Shown in pieces: positions 26,466-32,930 of a stretch of 64,000 nucleotides of DNA. How positions within the stretch are numbered: the first letter of the stretch is position 1; every line of letters begins with the position of its first letter. Below the pieces are notes generated by a model, which worked only from the letters and a program-made list of their open reading frames with translations, made no database searches and was not told the origin of the DNA. The DNA comes from Prosthecobacter sp. (GTDB lineage Bacteria > Verrucomicrobiota > Verrucomicrobiia > Verrucomicrobiales > Verrucomicrobiaceae): assembly GCA_030827515.1 (NCBI GenBank), contig JAUREI010000001.1, forward strand, positions 1 to 64,000, read 5' to 3'. The translations under genes and the position numbers were made by a program.

Positions 26466-26513
26466 TGACATAAAAAATCGGCAAGGACACCTGGTACTGC
26501 CGATTTTATGTCA
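26466..26513. repeat. Inverted repeat (hairpin) downstream of the histidine kinase
   Basis: tgacataaaaaatcggca ... tgccgattttatgtca, 16-18 bp arms with about a 14-nt loop. Confidence 0.75.
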
Positions 26514-26657
26514 CGCGTTTTACGTGCAATCAGTCCTTGTTGGCTTTTTTCCAATCATTTGGATTTTTGTTAATTTTCACATCCCAAGGCACCTTGTTTT
26601 AACTTGTTTTCCTACTCTTTTCTTTTATTGTAGTATCCGAATTGACTGGGGTCACTC

Positions 26658-27290
26658 ATGAAGTCGCGAAGCAACCCGAGACATGATTATGCCCAGTGGC
26701 AGCTGGCGTTGAGTTTGTTTGAAACCCTGTTGTCCCTTTCGATTCTGGCCACCCTCGCTGTTCTGACACCCGCTGCCCTCTCCACCCTGGAAAGTTGGCG
26801 CGGCCTGACGGCCGTGCAGCAGGTCGCGGCCGACTTGGAAGCCGCCAAAATGCTGGCCTTGTCGAAGCAGCAGCCTTTCTGGGTGGCGTTCAGTGGAGCC
26901 GACAGCGCTTACCAAGTCTGCCAGCTGGCTACGGAAGCCGATGGCAGCCGTCGGTTGCTTCCGGTGGGTCCCCGGCGTCAGTTGCCAACCGGGCAGGTCC
27001 TCACTGCGACCGCCCCTGCCCTCGCCTCGGCGGGTTGCAATCTGCTGTTGGACGAAACCGCGCTCATGCCGGTCCATTTTGCCACAGGTACGGTCCACCT
27101 GCCCTGCCTCGGGTTTGGCCTGGCGGGAGAAGTCATCCACCCACCCACGAGTCGCCCGCTCCTCGCACTGGCCGAAGGGTACTACCGCCAAGGTCACGCG
27201 CGCAACACGCAGGGACGGCCTCACCGAGCCGAAGCCTGCCGGTGGCTGGCACTCCATCGGCACACGGGCACGCCCCTGATTCTGCCATGA
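26658..27290 (+). CDS. Prepilin-type protein, Verru_Chthon cassette protein D-like (GspH-like)
   Basis: N-terminal QLALSLFETLLSLSILATLAVLTPAAL hydrophobic helix; first gene of the overlapping cassette; length about 210 aa. Confidence 0.7.
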   Translation: MKSRSNPRHDYAQWQLALSLFETLLSLSILATLAVLTPAALSTLESWRGLTAVQQVAADLEAAKMLALSKQQPFWVAFSGADSAYQVCQLATEADGSRRLLPVGPRRQLPTGQVLTATAPALASAGCNLLLDETALMPVHFATGTVHLPCLGFGLAGEVIHPPTSRPLLALAEGYYRQGHARNTQGRPHRAEACRWLALHRHTGTPLILP

Positions 27291-27742
27291 ACAGAACCCT
27301 CCATGCACGTGGCCACGGCTTCAGCCTTGTTGAGACCCTGCTCACGCTGTCAGTCGCTTCCAGTGCGGTGATGGCAGTCATCGGCCTGCTTGCCATCAGC
27401 CTGAGTCTGGGACAGCAATGCCGCACCCAGACAGCGGCAGGCCAACTGGCCCAGCGTCTGGCCATGGCATGGCGCACAGAGGTCCAGCCCCCTCACCTTT
27501 TGCTGGTGGATCAATCGCTCAACGCCCTGCTGCCGCCGGAGGCCGCCGACAAGACTCAAGCTGCCTACGACACCGGTTCCCTGCATCCTGCCGCCGCTTA
27601 CTTTGCATCCATCTCCGCCCAACCTGCTCCAGCAGGGGAAACAAACGGCGCCATCCGCCTGCTGATCCGCGTCGAGTCGCCCGCCAGCGCGCCTGCCGGA
27701 CGGCGCAAGGTCCATCACTATGTCACTCTCGCCCCGCCCTGA
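27287..27742 (+). CDS. Prepilin-type protein, Verru_Chthon cassette protein B-like (GspI/PilV-like)
   Basis: MNRTLHARGHGFSLVETLLTLSVASSAVMAVIGLLAISLSLGQQ: canonical G/FSLVE site. ATGA overlap with the preceding gene. Confidence 0.8.
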   Translation: MNRTLHARGHGFSLVETLLTLSVASSAVMAVIGLLAISLSLGQQCRTQTAAGQLAQRLAMAWRTEVQPPHLLLVDQSLNALLPPEAADKTQAAYDTGSLHPAAAYFASISAQPAPAGETNGAIRLLIRVESPASAPAGRRKVHHYVTLAPP

Positions 27743-28565
27743 CCCAAACCGAGGCATCAAGGAGAAAGGCTCAACGCTGCTGGAGCTACTGTGCGCACTT
27801 TGCGCGGGGTTCCTGATCCTTCTCTGCCTGCTGGAGGGCGTGCGTGGTGCCATGGACACCTGGTGCAGTCAGACCCGGCAAGTCGATATGGATCGGGAAG
27901 CCCGATCAGCCCTGCGTCTGTTGCTGGATGATTGGCGCAGCCTCGTCAGGATCCCCGCGGACGATGAGGGAACCGCCCACCCCTTTCTTTGCATCGCCGA
28001 ACCCGAGGATACCCGTGCGTCCACACGCCTGGCGGTGCTGCGCACCCCGCCGACACCCACCGTCCCGACCGAAGAGTATGGGGGCGACCTCTGCATGGCC
28101 CTCTATGGCGTGGTCTTCACGAGCGACGACGACGCAACCTCGACCATCGGACGAGTGGCCAGCCAGAAACTGGTTCGCCGAGTCCTTTCAACCGAGGAAA
28201 CCTACCGTCGCCTGCGTGCGCACCTGCGAGACGGGCTCCCCCTGGTCTCGGAACACGACTGGCAGGAGCTGCAGCAGCATCCTGAAACCCACGAACCCGT
28301 GGCCCACCACGTCGTCCAGTTTCAGGCGAGGATTCCGCCCTCATCACTGCCTACCGGACTTGCTCAAACCGCAGAAGAACCCGTTCGGCTCGAAGTGACG
28401 CTGCGACTCACCAGTCAGGGCGTTGCCCGGATGCTTCGCAACGAGGCCGACTGGCGCGGCGATGGCCCGCATGCGCGACTCCTGCATCAGGACACCCCCG
28501 ACAACCCCAACGACGACCATGAAGTTCGCACCTACACCCTGCACCTCGCCAAGGAGGGATCCTGA
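27720..28565 (+). CDS. Prepilin-type protein, Verru_Chthon cassette protein C-like (GspJ/PilW-like)
   Basis: IKEKGSTLLELLCALCAGFLILLCLLEGV: prepilin-type site with Glu at +5. Overlaps the previous gene by 23 bp. Confidence 0.8.
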   Translation: MSLSPRPDPNRGIKEKGSTLLELLCALCAGFLILLCLLEGVRGAMDTWCSQTRQVDMDREARSALRLLLDDWRSLVRIPADDEGTAHPFLCIAEPEDTRASTRLAVLRTPPTPTVPTEEYGGDLCMALYGVVFTSDDDATSTIGRVASQKLVRRVLSTEETYRRLRAHLRDGLPLVSEHDWQELQQHPETHEPVAHHVVQFQARIPPSSLPTGLAQTAEEPVRLEVTLRLTSQGVARMLRNEADWRGDGPHARLLHQDTPDNPNDDHEVRTYTLHLAKEGS

Positions 28566-31551
28566 GAGGTCCCGGTCAGGCGGCTTCACCCTCGTTGCCA
28601 CCCTGCTTCTGCTCGCCACCCTGACCCTCATCGTCACCGGCCTGCTCGCCCTCACGACCCGCGAGACGCAAGTCACCGCGGCCTACGACGCCATCGCCAA
28701 GGCTGAACTTGCCGTTCAGGCCGGACTGGCCCAGGCTGCGAGCCGTCTTGACACGGCCCTACGCGACGAGACCTGCGTCATCTTCGCCGCAAGCCCTGCA
28801 ACACCCGATGACGAGCCGCGCCTGCCTGTTCTGCTGTCGGCCCACTTCGACCCTGTAGGCAGACTCTGGAACTACCAAACCCTTGCCTCAGGACGTGCTG
28901 ACCCTCCCCCCAGCGAACGTTTGCAAGCTCAACCCGATTCCCCCCAGAATGGCGGAGAAACGATCTGGCGGCAGCAGCCCACCCCTGAAGAGACACTCGC
29001 CCTGACCCGCCACCCGGTCGCCTCCCCTGGACAACTCGCGCCCCCAGTTGGCTGGGAAAATCTGCAGGTGCCCCTGGAAGACGGCGTGCAACTGACCGCA
29101 AGGTATTGCTACCACCTTGAGGACCTTCAGGGCCGACTGAATCTCGGGCACGCCGGCAATCTGGATGGCGAGACCCTTCGTCACACCCGCCAGCCTCCTC
29201 TTCCACATGCCGTTCCCGGGCTGCACCTTGGCCGCCCGGGTGTCCTTGACCAATCTGCCTTGTTCACCCTGCTTGAGCCTGCCGCCGAATCAGATCACTC
29301 GGACGCCGCCCGTCACTTGCTGCGCAACCGCCCGTTGCAGCTCTCGCCTGACCTCTGGAAGCAGGTCCTGCTGCAGCCCGACCCGCACTGGAACTGGCCC
29401 GGGATGCCGCCTGAACGGGCCCTCGCCCGCGACCCGATCAGCCGGCGCCTGCTTGATCCTGCCTGGCGCAGCCTGGAGGAACAAACCGTTTCACGACTGC
29501 CCGCCTACGAGGAGTTGGCCCTGATCCCCCCCGACCCTGCCTTCGCCCCCCGCACAGCAACGGCGCGCAAACTGAACCTCAATCGCCTGCTCGGGCGCCT
29601 TGAACGCGCCACCCCGGCTGAACGCCCCGCCCTGGCCCGGTCGGCCGTCGCGGAAATCGCCACCCACATTCGCAGTTTCCTGCCTGATTTTTCCCGTCGA
29701 TGCGGCGGCTACCCGCTGGGTGGCAGTGAGGATGAGCGACGGTTCAACTACCTCCAATGCCTGGCAGCCGGGATCCTCGACTATGCCGACAGCGATTCCT
29801 ACCCCCTGTTGGTGGAAGGTGCCTACCGGGGCACGGACGCCCACCCTCTCGTCACGGAACAATGGCAGCGCTACCGCTTCGAACGCACTTACACGGAAGG
29901 CGGGGATCGTTTCATCGAGTTTTCCATCAGCACCTATCTGGAACTCTGGAACCCGACCAACCTGCCGGTTCAGGGACGGGTCCAGGCCGCCTTTGAATGC
30001 CGGGGGCAACTCACCGCCGGGGCCGGCCTGTTCCAGATCGACGAGCTGCTTGAAGGCACCCATCCAGATGGGCGCGTGCACTCGGGTCTCCCTCTCCGGG
30101 AGGGAGACCAATGGTGGCACGCAAGCCTTCCCGTCGAGTTGCAGCCCGCCCAGTTCAACGTGGCCTGTTTTGAACCGGTGGTTTTCCGGCTGCGCTCCGG
30201 ACCCGCCAGCCTGATCACCCGGAGCGTGGACTACGCCGGCCCCGATGAGGGTCGCGACCGCCAAAGCCGCTACCGCCTTCGCTATGCAGTCACCGGTGAC
30301 TCGCCGGTCTTGGTGGATCAGCCCCTGCGAGCTCTTGATCGGCCAGCATGGTTCGGTCTCGACTCCGGCAGTCGCCGCCAGCGTTTTAACACCACCCTTC
30401 CCGGCATGTCTTATTCCGAAGGTTTCGGCAGCGGCCGCTACGCCGACAACCTTGGCGACCCGCGAGCCGCCTTCTTCATTGACCATCCCCAGGATCAGGT
30501 GAACTACGAAAACGGCTCCAGCCCAGGGTCACGCAACCTGCGCTTCAACATCGCCGCCGGCGCCTTCCACCGCGAGTGCCTGCCACATTTGTGGCCCGAT
30601 GGCGGCCACAGCACCATGGCCCGCAAAAACCGCATCGGCAGCAACCTTCGCAATCCGGATGAACCACCGATCCCTCCGCTGCCGCCGAGTGTCGGCCAGC
30701 ATGTTCAGCACCTCTCCAACCTGGGGCGCTTGTTCAGCGTCAGCGAACTCGGTCATGTCTTCGACCCAGTCATGTGGGATGCGAATGGCGGCAGTGAATT
30801 TGATACCCCCTCGCATCGCGCCAACGCTGACCTCACCACGACAGCCTTACCCTCTTCGAAATACTGCGGCGGTCACAGCCTGCGAATTGGCCGCCCCGAA
30901 CACCGTCGTTTTCGACCGGCGAAAAACACCTCCCCAGGGATCCTGCTCAGGGATCGTCGCTTCTGCGCGACCTCACTGCTCGATCTCTTCCACTGCGGCC
31001 AGCCCTTCAGTTCTGACGCCGCGGACCGCGAGGGAGATTATGTTCGTATCGACGGCCACATCAACCTCAACACTGCCACGCGCGACACCCTGCGGGCTTT
31101 GGCTGCCGGACGACTGGTGATGGACCCGGTCTCCATTCCTCCACGAATTAACCCGCCATGGCAGGTCCGACAGGCGGATGTTGTTGCCGACGCCATCCTC
31201 CGTGCGCGGCCTTTTCTGACGCCAGCCGAGTTACCGGAGCAACTGCTGGACGCCGATGGCGAGCTGCTTCTCGGACACAGTGAGCGAATCGGAGGCAACG
31301 AGGTTCGGCCGGAATGGAACGATGCAGCGGCCGAGGAGATTTTTGCACGGTTGTTCAATGGATCCACCGTCCGCAGCCGCCACTTCCGCCTTGTTGTCAC
31401 CGGGCAATGCTGCAGGACCACACGGAATGGCGAAGTGCGAATGCTGGCCACCCGCTCGCGTTCCTTCGACCTCTTCCTCAAGCCGGTACGCGGCAAGGAC
31501 GGCAACCTTCTACGCCATGAACTCCAGATCCTCCGTTCTCGCCAGATTTAG
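28519..31551 (+). CDS. Large Verru_Chthon cassette protein A-like (GspK/PilX-like)
   Basis: RSGGFTLVATLLLLATLTLIVTGLLAL (no Glu at +5, as in GspK) and a GspK-like motif DGHINLNTATRDTLRALAAG near the C-terminus. ATG at 28519 is the best start, overlapping the previous gene. Confidence 0.78.
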   Translation: MKFAPTPCTSPRRDPERSRSGGFTLVATLLLLATLTLIVTGLLALTTRETQVTAAYDAIAKAELAVQAGLAQAASRLDTALRDETCVIFAASPATPDDEPRLPVLLSAHFDPVGRLWNYQTLASGRADPPPSERLQAQPDSPQNGGETIWRQQPTPEETLALTRHPVASPGQLAPPVGWENLQVPLEDGVQLTARYCYHLEDLQGRLNLGHAGNLDGETLRHTRQPPLPHAVPGLHLGRPGVLDQSALFTLLEPAAESDHSDAARHLLRNRPLQLSPDLWKQVLLQPDPHWNWPGMPPERALARDPISRRLLDPAWRSLEEQTVSRLPAYEELALIPPDPAFAPRTATARKLNLNRLLGRLERATPAERPALARSAVAEIATHIRSFLPDFSRRCGGYPLGGSEDERRFNYLQCLAAGILDYADSDSYPLLVEGAYRGTDAHPLVTEQWQRYRFERTYTEGGDRFIEFSISTYLELWNPTNLPVQGRVQAAFECRGQLTAGAGLFQIDELLEGTHPDGRVHSGLPLREGDQWWHASLPVELQPAQFNVACFEPVVFRLRSGPASLITRSVDYAGPDEGRDRQSRYRLRYAVTGDSPVLVDQPLRALDRPAWFGLDSGSRRQRFNTTLPGMSYSEGFGSGRYADNLGDPRAAFFIDHPQDQVNYENGSSPGSRNLRFNIAAGAFHRECLPHLWPDGGHSTMARKNRIGSNLRNPDEPPIPPLPPSVGQHVQHLSNLGRLFSVSELGHVFDPVMWDANGGSEFDTPSHRANADLTTTALPSSKYCGGHSLRIGRPEHRRFRPAKNTSPGILLRDRRFCATSLLDLFHCGQPFSSDAADREGDYVRIDGHINLNTATRDTLRALAAGRLVMDPVSIPPRINPPWQVRQADVVADAILRARPFLTPAELPEQLLDADGELLLGHSERIGGNEVRPEWNDAAAEEIFARLFNGSTVRSRHFRLVVTGQCCRTTRNGEVRMLATRSRSFDLFLKPVRGKDGNLLRHELQILRSRQI

Positions 31552-32203
31552 CGCCATCCACTTGTTCTTGCTGTGTGCCTGCACGGTCTCTGCCCAAGAG
31601 GCGCCACCGGCTGCCCTTCGCTTCGTCAACGCCACCGGCATCGAAGAACCCCTTCTCATTGTGGTGAACGGCGACCGGCTCCAGTCCCGTGGATATTCCA
31701 GCGGTTCTGCAACCGGGCGCCTTCACCTGCCAGCCACACCCTGCCGGATTGAACTCTCCCACACGGAACTCGGCAGACACAATTTCACGCTCGACCTGCA
31801 AGCCGGTGTCGAACACATCGTCGTCGCTCATACCGTAGCCGAGACCGGGAACGGAGTTCATCCCCTCAAGTTCCGACTGGAACACCAGGTTCTGAACCCA
31901 TCTCCCGGTGAATCAACCGGCAAAAGTCGGCTGCAACTGCTGCAGACCACGATGCAGGCCCACCTCGAGTTGCGACTGGCCGGCACCCCGCTTCGCTTGG
32001 CGCGCTTGCGACCCGAAACCCTTGAGCTTCCGTCAACCAATTCAGAAATCGGCGTCTACCATGGGGATCTTCTGCTCGGGCGACTGCCATTCAGCGAACC
32101 CGGCCACGGCACCGTGATTCTGTTCACCGACACCGCCGGACATCTGCATCACGTTTTTTTCCTTGAACCCGGCACTGCAGAGGAATCGTCCGATCGGAGG
32201 TGA
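31517..32203 (+). CDS. Secreted hypothetical protein, fifth cassette gene
   Basis: Signal peptide MNSRSSVLARFSAIHLFLLCACTVSAQE; 35-bp overlap with the preceding CDS. Confidence 0.72.
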   Translation: MNSRSSVLARFSAIHLFLLCACTVSAQEAPPAALRFVNATGIEEPLLIVVNGDRLQSRGYSSGSATGRLHLPATPCRIELSHTELGRHNFTLDLQAGVEHIVVAHTVAETGNGVHPLKFRLEHQVLNPSPGESTGKSRLQLLQTTMQAHLELRLAGTPLRLARLRPETLELPSTNSEIGVYHGDLLLGRLPFSEPGHGTVILFTDTAGHLHHVFFLEPGTAEESSDRR

Positions 32204-32220
32204 CATCGCTACAAAGCAAA

Positions 32221-32246
32221 ACGGCTTTCCCTCGCGGGAAAGCCGT
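32221..32246 (-). terminator. Hairpin between convergent genes, probable terminator (best T-tract on minus strand)
   Basis: acggctttccc-tcgc-gggaaagccgt; on the minus strand it is followed by ttttgcttt. Confidence 0.75.
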
Positions 32247-32267
32247 TCGACTTGAAGAACTGACAAT

Positions 32268-32930
32268 TTACTTGGACAAGGTGCTGGCGGCCGGTGCCGG
32301 AGCGGCCGGCGCCTCAGCCATCACGTATTGTGGGGTCTGCGGGAAGGCACGATTCCAGCCCGAGCCCGGCATGTCGCTGACGGCGAACTGGTCGTTGGCG
32401 CTGCCAACCATGTAGTTTTTGGTGGGGACCACGGTGCGCTTGATGAGACAGAAGAAGCCGCTGCTGGCGGTGTGAACCGTGTTGGCATAGGTTTCAACCC
32501 CGGTGCCGACGGTCTTGCCGGCGGTGCACATGACGCGACCGGCGGCATGGTTGACGATGCCCGAGTAGGTGCTGACCTGCTCGTTGCCGAGGTCGACAGT
32601 GTCATCAGCCACGTCGAGAACCGTGTTGCTGGTCTTGTGGGTTTCCCTCGCAACGATCTGGCTGCCGTGGCGACCCGTGTCGATCACGGTGCCGGCGTAG
32701 CGGCGGGACTGCTTGCGCCCGAAAATTCCGAGAAGGCCGGCGGAGTCATCGGTGACGTCCATGGTGGCAACGGCCGTGTTGTCAATCGTGCCGTGCAAAC
32801 CCTGGCCAAAAGCTTCGTCGAGCTTCTGTTCGCCTTGGCGAGCCGCGTCGCGGGACGGGCGCTGGGCCACTTGGCTGGAAGTGCAGGAGGCGAGAACGGG
32901 AATCACCACGAGAGCGAGATATTTATTCAT
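32268..32930 (-). CDS. Putative lipoprotein of unknown function
   Basis: MNKYLALVVIPVLASCTSSQ with lipobox LASC; no recognised domain. Confidence 0.7.
   Translation of the reverse strand: MNKYLALVVIPVLASCTSSQVAQRPSRDAARQGEQKLDEAFGQGLHGTIDNTAVATMDVTDDSAGLLGIFGRKQSRRYAGTVIDTGRHGSQIVARETHKTSNTVLDVADDTVDLGNEQVSTYSGIVNHAAGRVMCTAGKTVGTGVETYANTVHTASSGFFCLIKRTVVPTKNYMVGSANDQFAVSDMPGSGWNRAFPQTPQYVMAEAPAAPAPAASTLSK

What the first reader, a model, noticed from the sequence alone, without database searches (positions are those of the whole stretch)
26658..32203. Five-gene overlapping pseudopilin cassette in GspH-I-J-K order with a secreted fifth partner
Four consecutive ORFs carry prepilin-like N-termini with overlapping starts and stops (4, 23 and about 47 bp), matching the Verru_Chthon D-B-C-A cassette of unknown function. 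The order and features parallel T2SS minor pseudopilins: GspH-like, GspI-like (GFSLVE), GspJ-like (GSTLLE), and a large GspK-like protein lacking Glu+5 but carrying an INLNTA motif. No major pilin, ATPase, secretin or prepilin peptidase is present here. A fifth gene (31517-32203), a signal-peptide protein, overlaps the large ORF by 35 bp, suggesting a conserved stoichiometric partner. Inference: a stand-alone pseudopilus tip complex that loads onto a shared T2SS/T4P machine, possibly for a specific cargo.
Basis: partly seen in the sequence, partly recalled or inferred. Interest (0 to 1): 0.7.

Follow-up and report, generated by a model that had tools for sequence, protein, structure and literature searches.

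The report
Five-gene pilus-tip cassette with fixed partner
Four pilin-like proteins resembling the tip of a bacterial secretion pilus travel as a fixed set with a fifth exported protein in Verrucomicrobiales bacteria, apart from any pilus machine, so they are probably an interchangeable tip for machinery encoded elsewhere in the genome.

Summary
The gene structure is confirmed: five co-directional overlapping ORFs at 26658-32203, four with prepilin N-termini and one with a signal peptide. Filing them under Verru_Chthon is not supported. All NCBIfam hits are far below cut-off, and the large protein aligns with Verru_Chthon A over only 53 N-terminal columns. Canonical Verru_Chthon is a separate element, present in 62 of 68 family genomes and elsewhere in this one. 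The set corresponds to GspH-I-J-K: Glu5 is present in H, I and J and absent in K, and K carries a GspK-type NxNTA motif. The fifth gene, E, is a real partner. In 68 family genomes E and K occur in exactly the same 13, and every listed E match lies at the cassette. Order H-I-J-K-E recurs in four lineages of Verrucomicrobiales. E is predicted as a signal peptide plus two beta-sandwich domains. The genome has a separate T2SS with its own H-I-J-K, one prepilin peptidase on another contig, and no PilY1 match. Best reading: an alternative type IV filament tip complex, with E in the slot PilY1 fills in M. xanthus. Tip assembly, machine sharing and cargo are inferred, not shown.

The parts
26658..27290 (+). 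H: GspH/FimU-like minor pseudopilin, 210 aa, Glu5, Ala at -1
   Evidence: sub-cutoff ComGD 19.7 bits, PF12019 GspH E=0.051; orthologues in A3; Glu5 in 25 of 25 parsed
27287..27742 (+). I: GspI/PilV-like minor pseudopilin, 151 aa, GFSLVE
   Evidence: sub-cutoff TIGR02598 23.3 bits, gspI E=0.016; A5; Glu5 in 23 of 24 parsed
27720..28565 (+). J: GspJ/PilW-like minor pseudopilin, 281 aa, GSTLLE
   Evidence: no NCBIfam hit; assigned by orthologue alignment A4 and position; Glu5 in 26 of 28 parsed
28519..31551 (+). K: oversized GspK/PilX-like tip pseudopilin, 1010 aa, no Glu5, INLNTA motif
   Evidence: GspK NF037980 in 11 of 12 members, best 1.4e-9, all of the window copy below cut-off; T2SSK in 6 of 12, PilX_N in 7 of 12; motifs
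31517..32203 (+). E: signal peptide plus two tandem beta-sandwich domains, 228 aa
   Evidence: AF2 pLDDT 86.2; DUF4397 in 2 and PEGA in 3 of 12 members, no hit in the window copy; co-occurs with K in 13 of 13 genomes
32219..32248 (.). 13-bp hairpin between E and the convergent gene at 32268-32930, possible terminator
   Evidence: consensus match only

Best explanation
The locus encodes an alternative tip (priming) complex for a type IV filament machine. H, I, J and K are processed by the single prepilin peptidase found, which is on another contig. K lacks Glu5 and so would sit at the extreme tip above J, I and H. E is exported by a type I signal peptide and would dock on K, occupying the slot that PilY1 holds over PilX in M. 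xanthus, where three FimU-PilV-PilW-PilX-PilY1 clusters share one machine. The complex would start a pseudopilus or pilus on shared machinery and present E and the large K ectodomain at its tip, for substrate contact or for pushing a particular exoprotein. Shown here: gene content, order, overlaps, motifs, the K-E co-occurrence, the separate T2SS cluster with its own H-I-J-K, the single peptidase, and the predicted fold of E. Inferred: processing of these pilins, tip assembly, K-E contact, machine sharing, and any cargo.
For: Glu5 present in H (25/25), I (23/24) and J (26/28), and in none of 31 parsed K proteins (the few odd cases look truncated or mis-parsed, two of the K ones included). NxNTA-type motif in K of 27 of 32 loci by the pattern used. 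GspK profile in 11 of 12, T2SSK in 6 of 12, PilX_N in 7 of 12 K members. E and K in exactly the same 13 of 68 genomes, every listed E match at the cassette. E start overlaps K by 17 nt in most loci of f1, g11 and f2. Cassette order kept in four lineages, with one rearranged K-H-I-J-E clade. T2SS cluster with its own H-I-J-K-L-M-D on C273. One prepilin peptidase, on C304. Machine genes near only 2 of 32 cassette loci. No PilY1 match in the genome. E model confident. Precedent for several minor-pilin clusters on one machine: PMC7541494.
Against: No complex prediction or interaction data. The K model is poor (pLDDT 58, pTM 0.49) and has no PDB match at E<=0.001, so a GspK fold is not shown beyond the N-terminal region and the motif. 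K against the genome's own GspK gives only E=0.12, at the motif. Nothing shows that E is at the tip rather than a periplasmic helper or a substrate. Which of the genome's several secretins and ATPases would be used is unknown. E has no PilY1 homology.
Confidence: 0.6

Rival explanations
1. E is not a tip component but a periplasmic chaperone, adaptor or small secreted substrate of the four pseudopilins.
For: Foldseek lists the AlgF N- and C-domains, though only at E about 0.1. Two E copies in L032, L035 and L039, which suits a substrate or adaptor as well as a tip part.
Against: Perfect co-occurrence with K and a recurrent K-E overlap fit a stoichiometric partner, but do not exclude a chaperone.
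Confidence: 0.22
2. The cassette is a divergent Verru_Chthon cassette with the same unknown role.
For: Same four pilin classes; canonical A also lacks Glu5 in the consensus and has an invariant NxNTA. The Verru_Chthon A profile reaches 1.5e-8 in the best of 12 K members.
Against: Window copy far below all cut-offs; only 53 N-terminal columns align profile to profile; canonical order is mostly A-B-C-D; the E profile matches only the 13 genomes with K, while canonical A is in 62 of 68.
Confidence: 0.12
3. The set serves a type IV pilus for DNA uptake or adhesion rather than secretion.
For: PilX_N in 7 of 12 K members, best 7.1e-5; PilT-like ATPases on C90 and further secretins on C149 and C189, which by my reading are of the Amuc_1098 pilus type.
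Against: NxNTA and the GspK profile point to the T2SS type. This differs from the best explanation mainly in which machine is used.
Confidence: 0.06

Closest known systems
T2SS minor pseudopilins GspH-I-J-K
   Same: Order, Glu5 pattern, K without Glu5, NxNTA motif in K
   Different: K about three times larger; no machine genes at the locus; constant extra gene E; the genome has another T2SS H-I-J-K set
FimU-PilV-PilW-PilX-PilY1 minor pilin clusters (M. xanthus, PMC7541494)
   Same: Four minor pilins plus one signal-peptide non-pilin protein in one cluster; PilX without Glu5; several clusters can share one machine
   Different: E is 228 aa with two beta-sandwiches and no PilY1 domain; machine sharing not shown here
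Verru_Chthon cassette (TIGR02596/02598/02599/02600)
   Same: Verrucomicrobial four-prepilin cassette of unknown function; A also lacks Glu5 and has NxNTA
   Different: Window copy fails all cut-offs, homology limited to the N-terminal helix of A, different order, no E, very different distribution

Membership tests
Verru_Chthon cassette | Scores over TIGR02598 (B) and TIGR02600 (A) cut-offs | tested here: not met
   23.3 of 51.4 bits and 16.8 of 332.3 bits
Verru_Chthon cassette | Scores over TIGR02596 (D) and TIGR02599 (C) cut-offs | tested here: not met
   neither listed at E<=10 for the H or J protein
Verru_Chthon cassette | Full-length homology of the large protein to A | tested here: not met
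   53 aligned columns only
T2SS minor pseudopilin set GspHIJK | Glu5 in H, I, J and absent in K | tested here: met
T2SS minor pseudopilin set GspHIJK | GspK equivalog or T2SSK score over cut-off | tested here: not met
   22.4 of 130 bits; T2SSK in 6 of 12 members only at E 0.0015 or worse
T2SS minor pseudopilin set GspHIJK | Encoded with T2SS machine genes | tested here: not met
   machine genes near 2 of 32 loci, none in the window
T2SS minor pseudopilin set GspHIJK | I-J-K tip complex | not testable with these tools
   no multimer prediction offered
PilY1 | C-terminal PilY1 domain (PF05567) | tested here: not met
   no match in E or in the genome
DUF4397 / PEGA | Pfam score over cut-off in E | tested here: not met
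   window E has no hit; other members match at best 4.6e-5 (DUF4397) and 3.3e-4 (PEGA)

The most novel reading that the evidence does not exclude
A modular tip kit: Verrucomicrobiales carry several interchangeable tip cassettes (canonical Verru_Chthon, this H-I-J-K-E set, the T2SS set) that share core filament machinery, each with its own non-pilin or exoprotein partner, so that tip swapping would decide which large exoprotein or surface contact the machine handles.
Probability: 0.3. Interest if true: 0.75.

Novelty: new variant of a known kind. Interest (0 to 1): 0.55.

Why it matters
If right, it adds a non-pilin tip partner unrelated to PilY1 to the type IV filament superfamily, and gives a testable reason why these genomes hold more minor-pilin sets than one machine needs. 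Full-text searches for 'Verru_Chthon', for 'PEP-CTERM' with 'pseudopilin', and for 'DUF4397' with 'pilin' returned no paper on such a cassette in the held library; that library lacks most subscription papers.

Tried and rejected
Filing under Verru_Chthon: rejected on cut-offs, profile comparison, order and distribution. Whole-protein fold match for K: model too poor, Foldseek gave nothing at E<=0.001. Profile search of the PDB with K: one hit at E 0.78. With E: amphiphysin and Bin1 chains at 1.5e-4 to 5e-3, over about 50 residues, not followed up. A shared cargo theme of nucleases and 5'-nucleotidases near the cassette: the neighbours proved diverse, so it was dropped as a general rule; a Pfam tally of the neighbours was not run. 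My guess, written into the notebook, that window E starts at a GTG giving the common 17-nt overlap was wrong: the codon there is GTT. Restriction to the order: K was not found outside Verrucomicrobiales in 291 phylum genomes at E<=1e-15, but only two candidates per genome were scored there, so this is a weak negative.

Full report
Observation. Five co-directional ORFs at 26658-32203 overlap by 4, 23, 47 and 35 nt. H, I and J have prepilin motifs with Glu5; K has GFTLVA without Glu5 and INLNTA; E has a signal-peptide-like N-terminus. A whole-genome search with K finds one copy in this genome.

What it is not. NCBIfam gives B 23.3 bits against a cut-off of 51.4, A 16.8 bits against 332.3 (positions 1-56 of 1296), and no TIGR02596 or TIGR02599 hit. 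hhalign of K orthologues against canonical Verru_Chthon A aligns 53 columns only. Canonical A is elsewhere in this genome (contig C283, 924 bits) and in 62 of 68 family genomes; K is in 13 of 68.

Conservation. In family f1, loci L032-L036, L038 and L039 and the window hold homologues of H, I, J, K and E; L037 starts inside J at its contig end. Profiles from these find the set in order H-I-J-K-E in f1, f2, f3 and genus g11, with one rearranged K-H-I-J-E clade, L033, L034 and L036. In the order, 90 of 289 genomes have a K match at E<=1e-10; weak and fragmentary matches are included. Not every K locus has E: L042, L052/L099, L053, L098, L106, L111 and L113, all lower-scoring, gave none. The K tree keeps f1 and f3 as single clades and f2 in two, which fits mostly vertical descent with loss; this was not tested against a species tree.

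E. In the 68 family genomes the E profile matches exactly the 13 that have K, always at the cassette. Genomes are related, so the count of possible arrangements printed is not a p-value. E starts 17 nt inside K in most f1, g11 and f2 loci; f3 loci lie within a few nt of K, and the window overlap is 35 nt. AF2 gives pLDDT 86.2 with a helix at 6-24 and two blocks of strands. The best Foldseek matches are the tandem extracellular domains of PepT1/PepT2 (E 1.8e-7 to 9.5e-6, 10-14% identity), a fold resemblance only.

K. GspK, T2SSK and PilX_N profiles match many members below cut-off. The AF2 model is weak, so the ectodomain is undefined.

Machine. Secretin domains lie on five contigs. Eight T2SSE-type matches pass the cut-off, on six contigs. 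One prepilin peptidase was found, on C304. C273 carries a GspH-like ORF at the contig end, then I-like, J (T2SSJ E=0.0015), K (T2SSK_1st 2.6e-11), a PilN-like L, M and GspD in order; the I and J calls rest partly on position. Search of 32 cassette loci with the genome's own ATPases, GspF and secretins finds machine genes in two, L034 and L112. No PilY1 match was found in the genome.

Model. M. xanthus has three clusters each of FimU, PilV, PilW, PilX and PilY1 that share one major pilin and machine; [quoted passage not shown] The H-I-J-K-E set has the same layout, with E in the PilY1 position. That is an analogy; E is not a PilY1 family member.

Side observation. I took 20 canonical Verru_Chthon loci from the score-ordered list. 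Twelve of them follow, or in L156 run on from, a co-directional large ORF of exoprotein type next to A. Nine of the twelve have a VPEP...RRRR tail or its like; two of the large ORFs were scanned and both carry PATR repeats. In the control loci 31 of 414 genes have an upstream neighbour of at least 800 aa. The loci are not a random sample, several come from the same genome, and the control genes come from other contexts, so the binomial values are indicative only.

Noticed in passing
L149-L156, L159, L165 (canonical Verru_Chthon loci): Cassette A lies next to large ORFs with PEP-CTERM-like tails (VPEP...RRRR; VPES in L153); two scanned ones carry PATR autotransporter repeats.
   Followed up: partly
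L156 (minus strand), 2074-aa ORF: A PEP-CTERM exoprotein reads in frame without a stop into Verru_Chthon A; fusion, read-through or sequence error not resolved.
   Followed up: no
L034:10029-16001 and L036:2-6484: In the K-first clade a giant protein with choice_anch_I, LTD and 5'-nucleotidase C-terminal domains ends 6-9 nt before K; L033 has a 533-aa fragment in the same place.
   Followed up: partly
L032, L035, L039: Two tandem copies of E in three genomes.
   Followed up: no
L017 (G036:C201:553-1197): The E match in this draft genome contains one TGA stop.
   Followed up: no
L125:10250-13271: Another cluster of prepilin-like ORFs in the same genome, including a 645-aa one with a hydrophobic N-terminus and no Glu5, with no NCBIfam hit.
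   Followed up: no
window 26470-26515: By eye, an imperfect inverted repeat (TGACATAAAAAATCGGCA / TGCCGATTTTATGTCA) in the gap upstream of H; the repeat finder did not list it.
   Followed up: no
genus g12 of family f2: None of the listed g12 genomes (2.2-3.3 Mb, possibly Akkermansia by size, not checked) has a K match at E<=1e-15.
   Followed up: no
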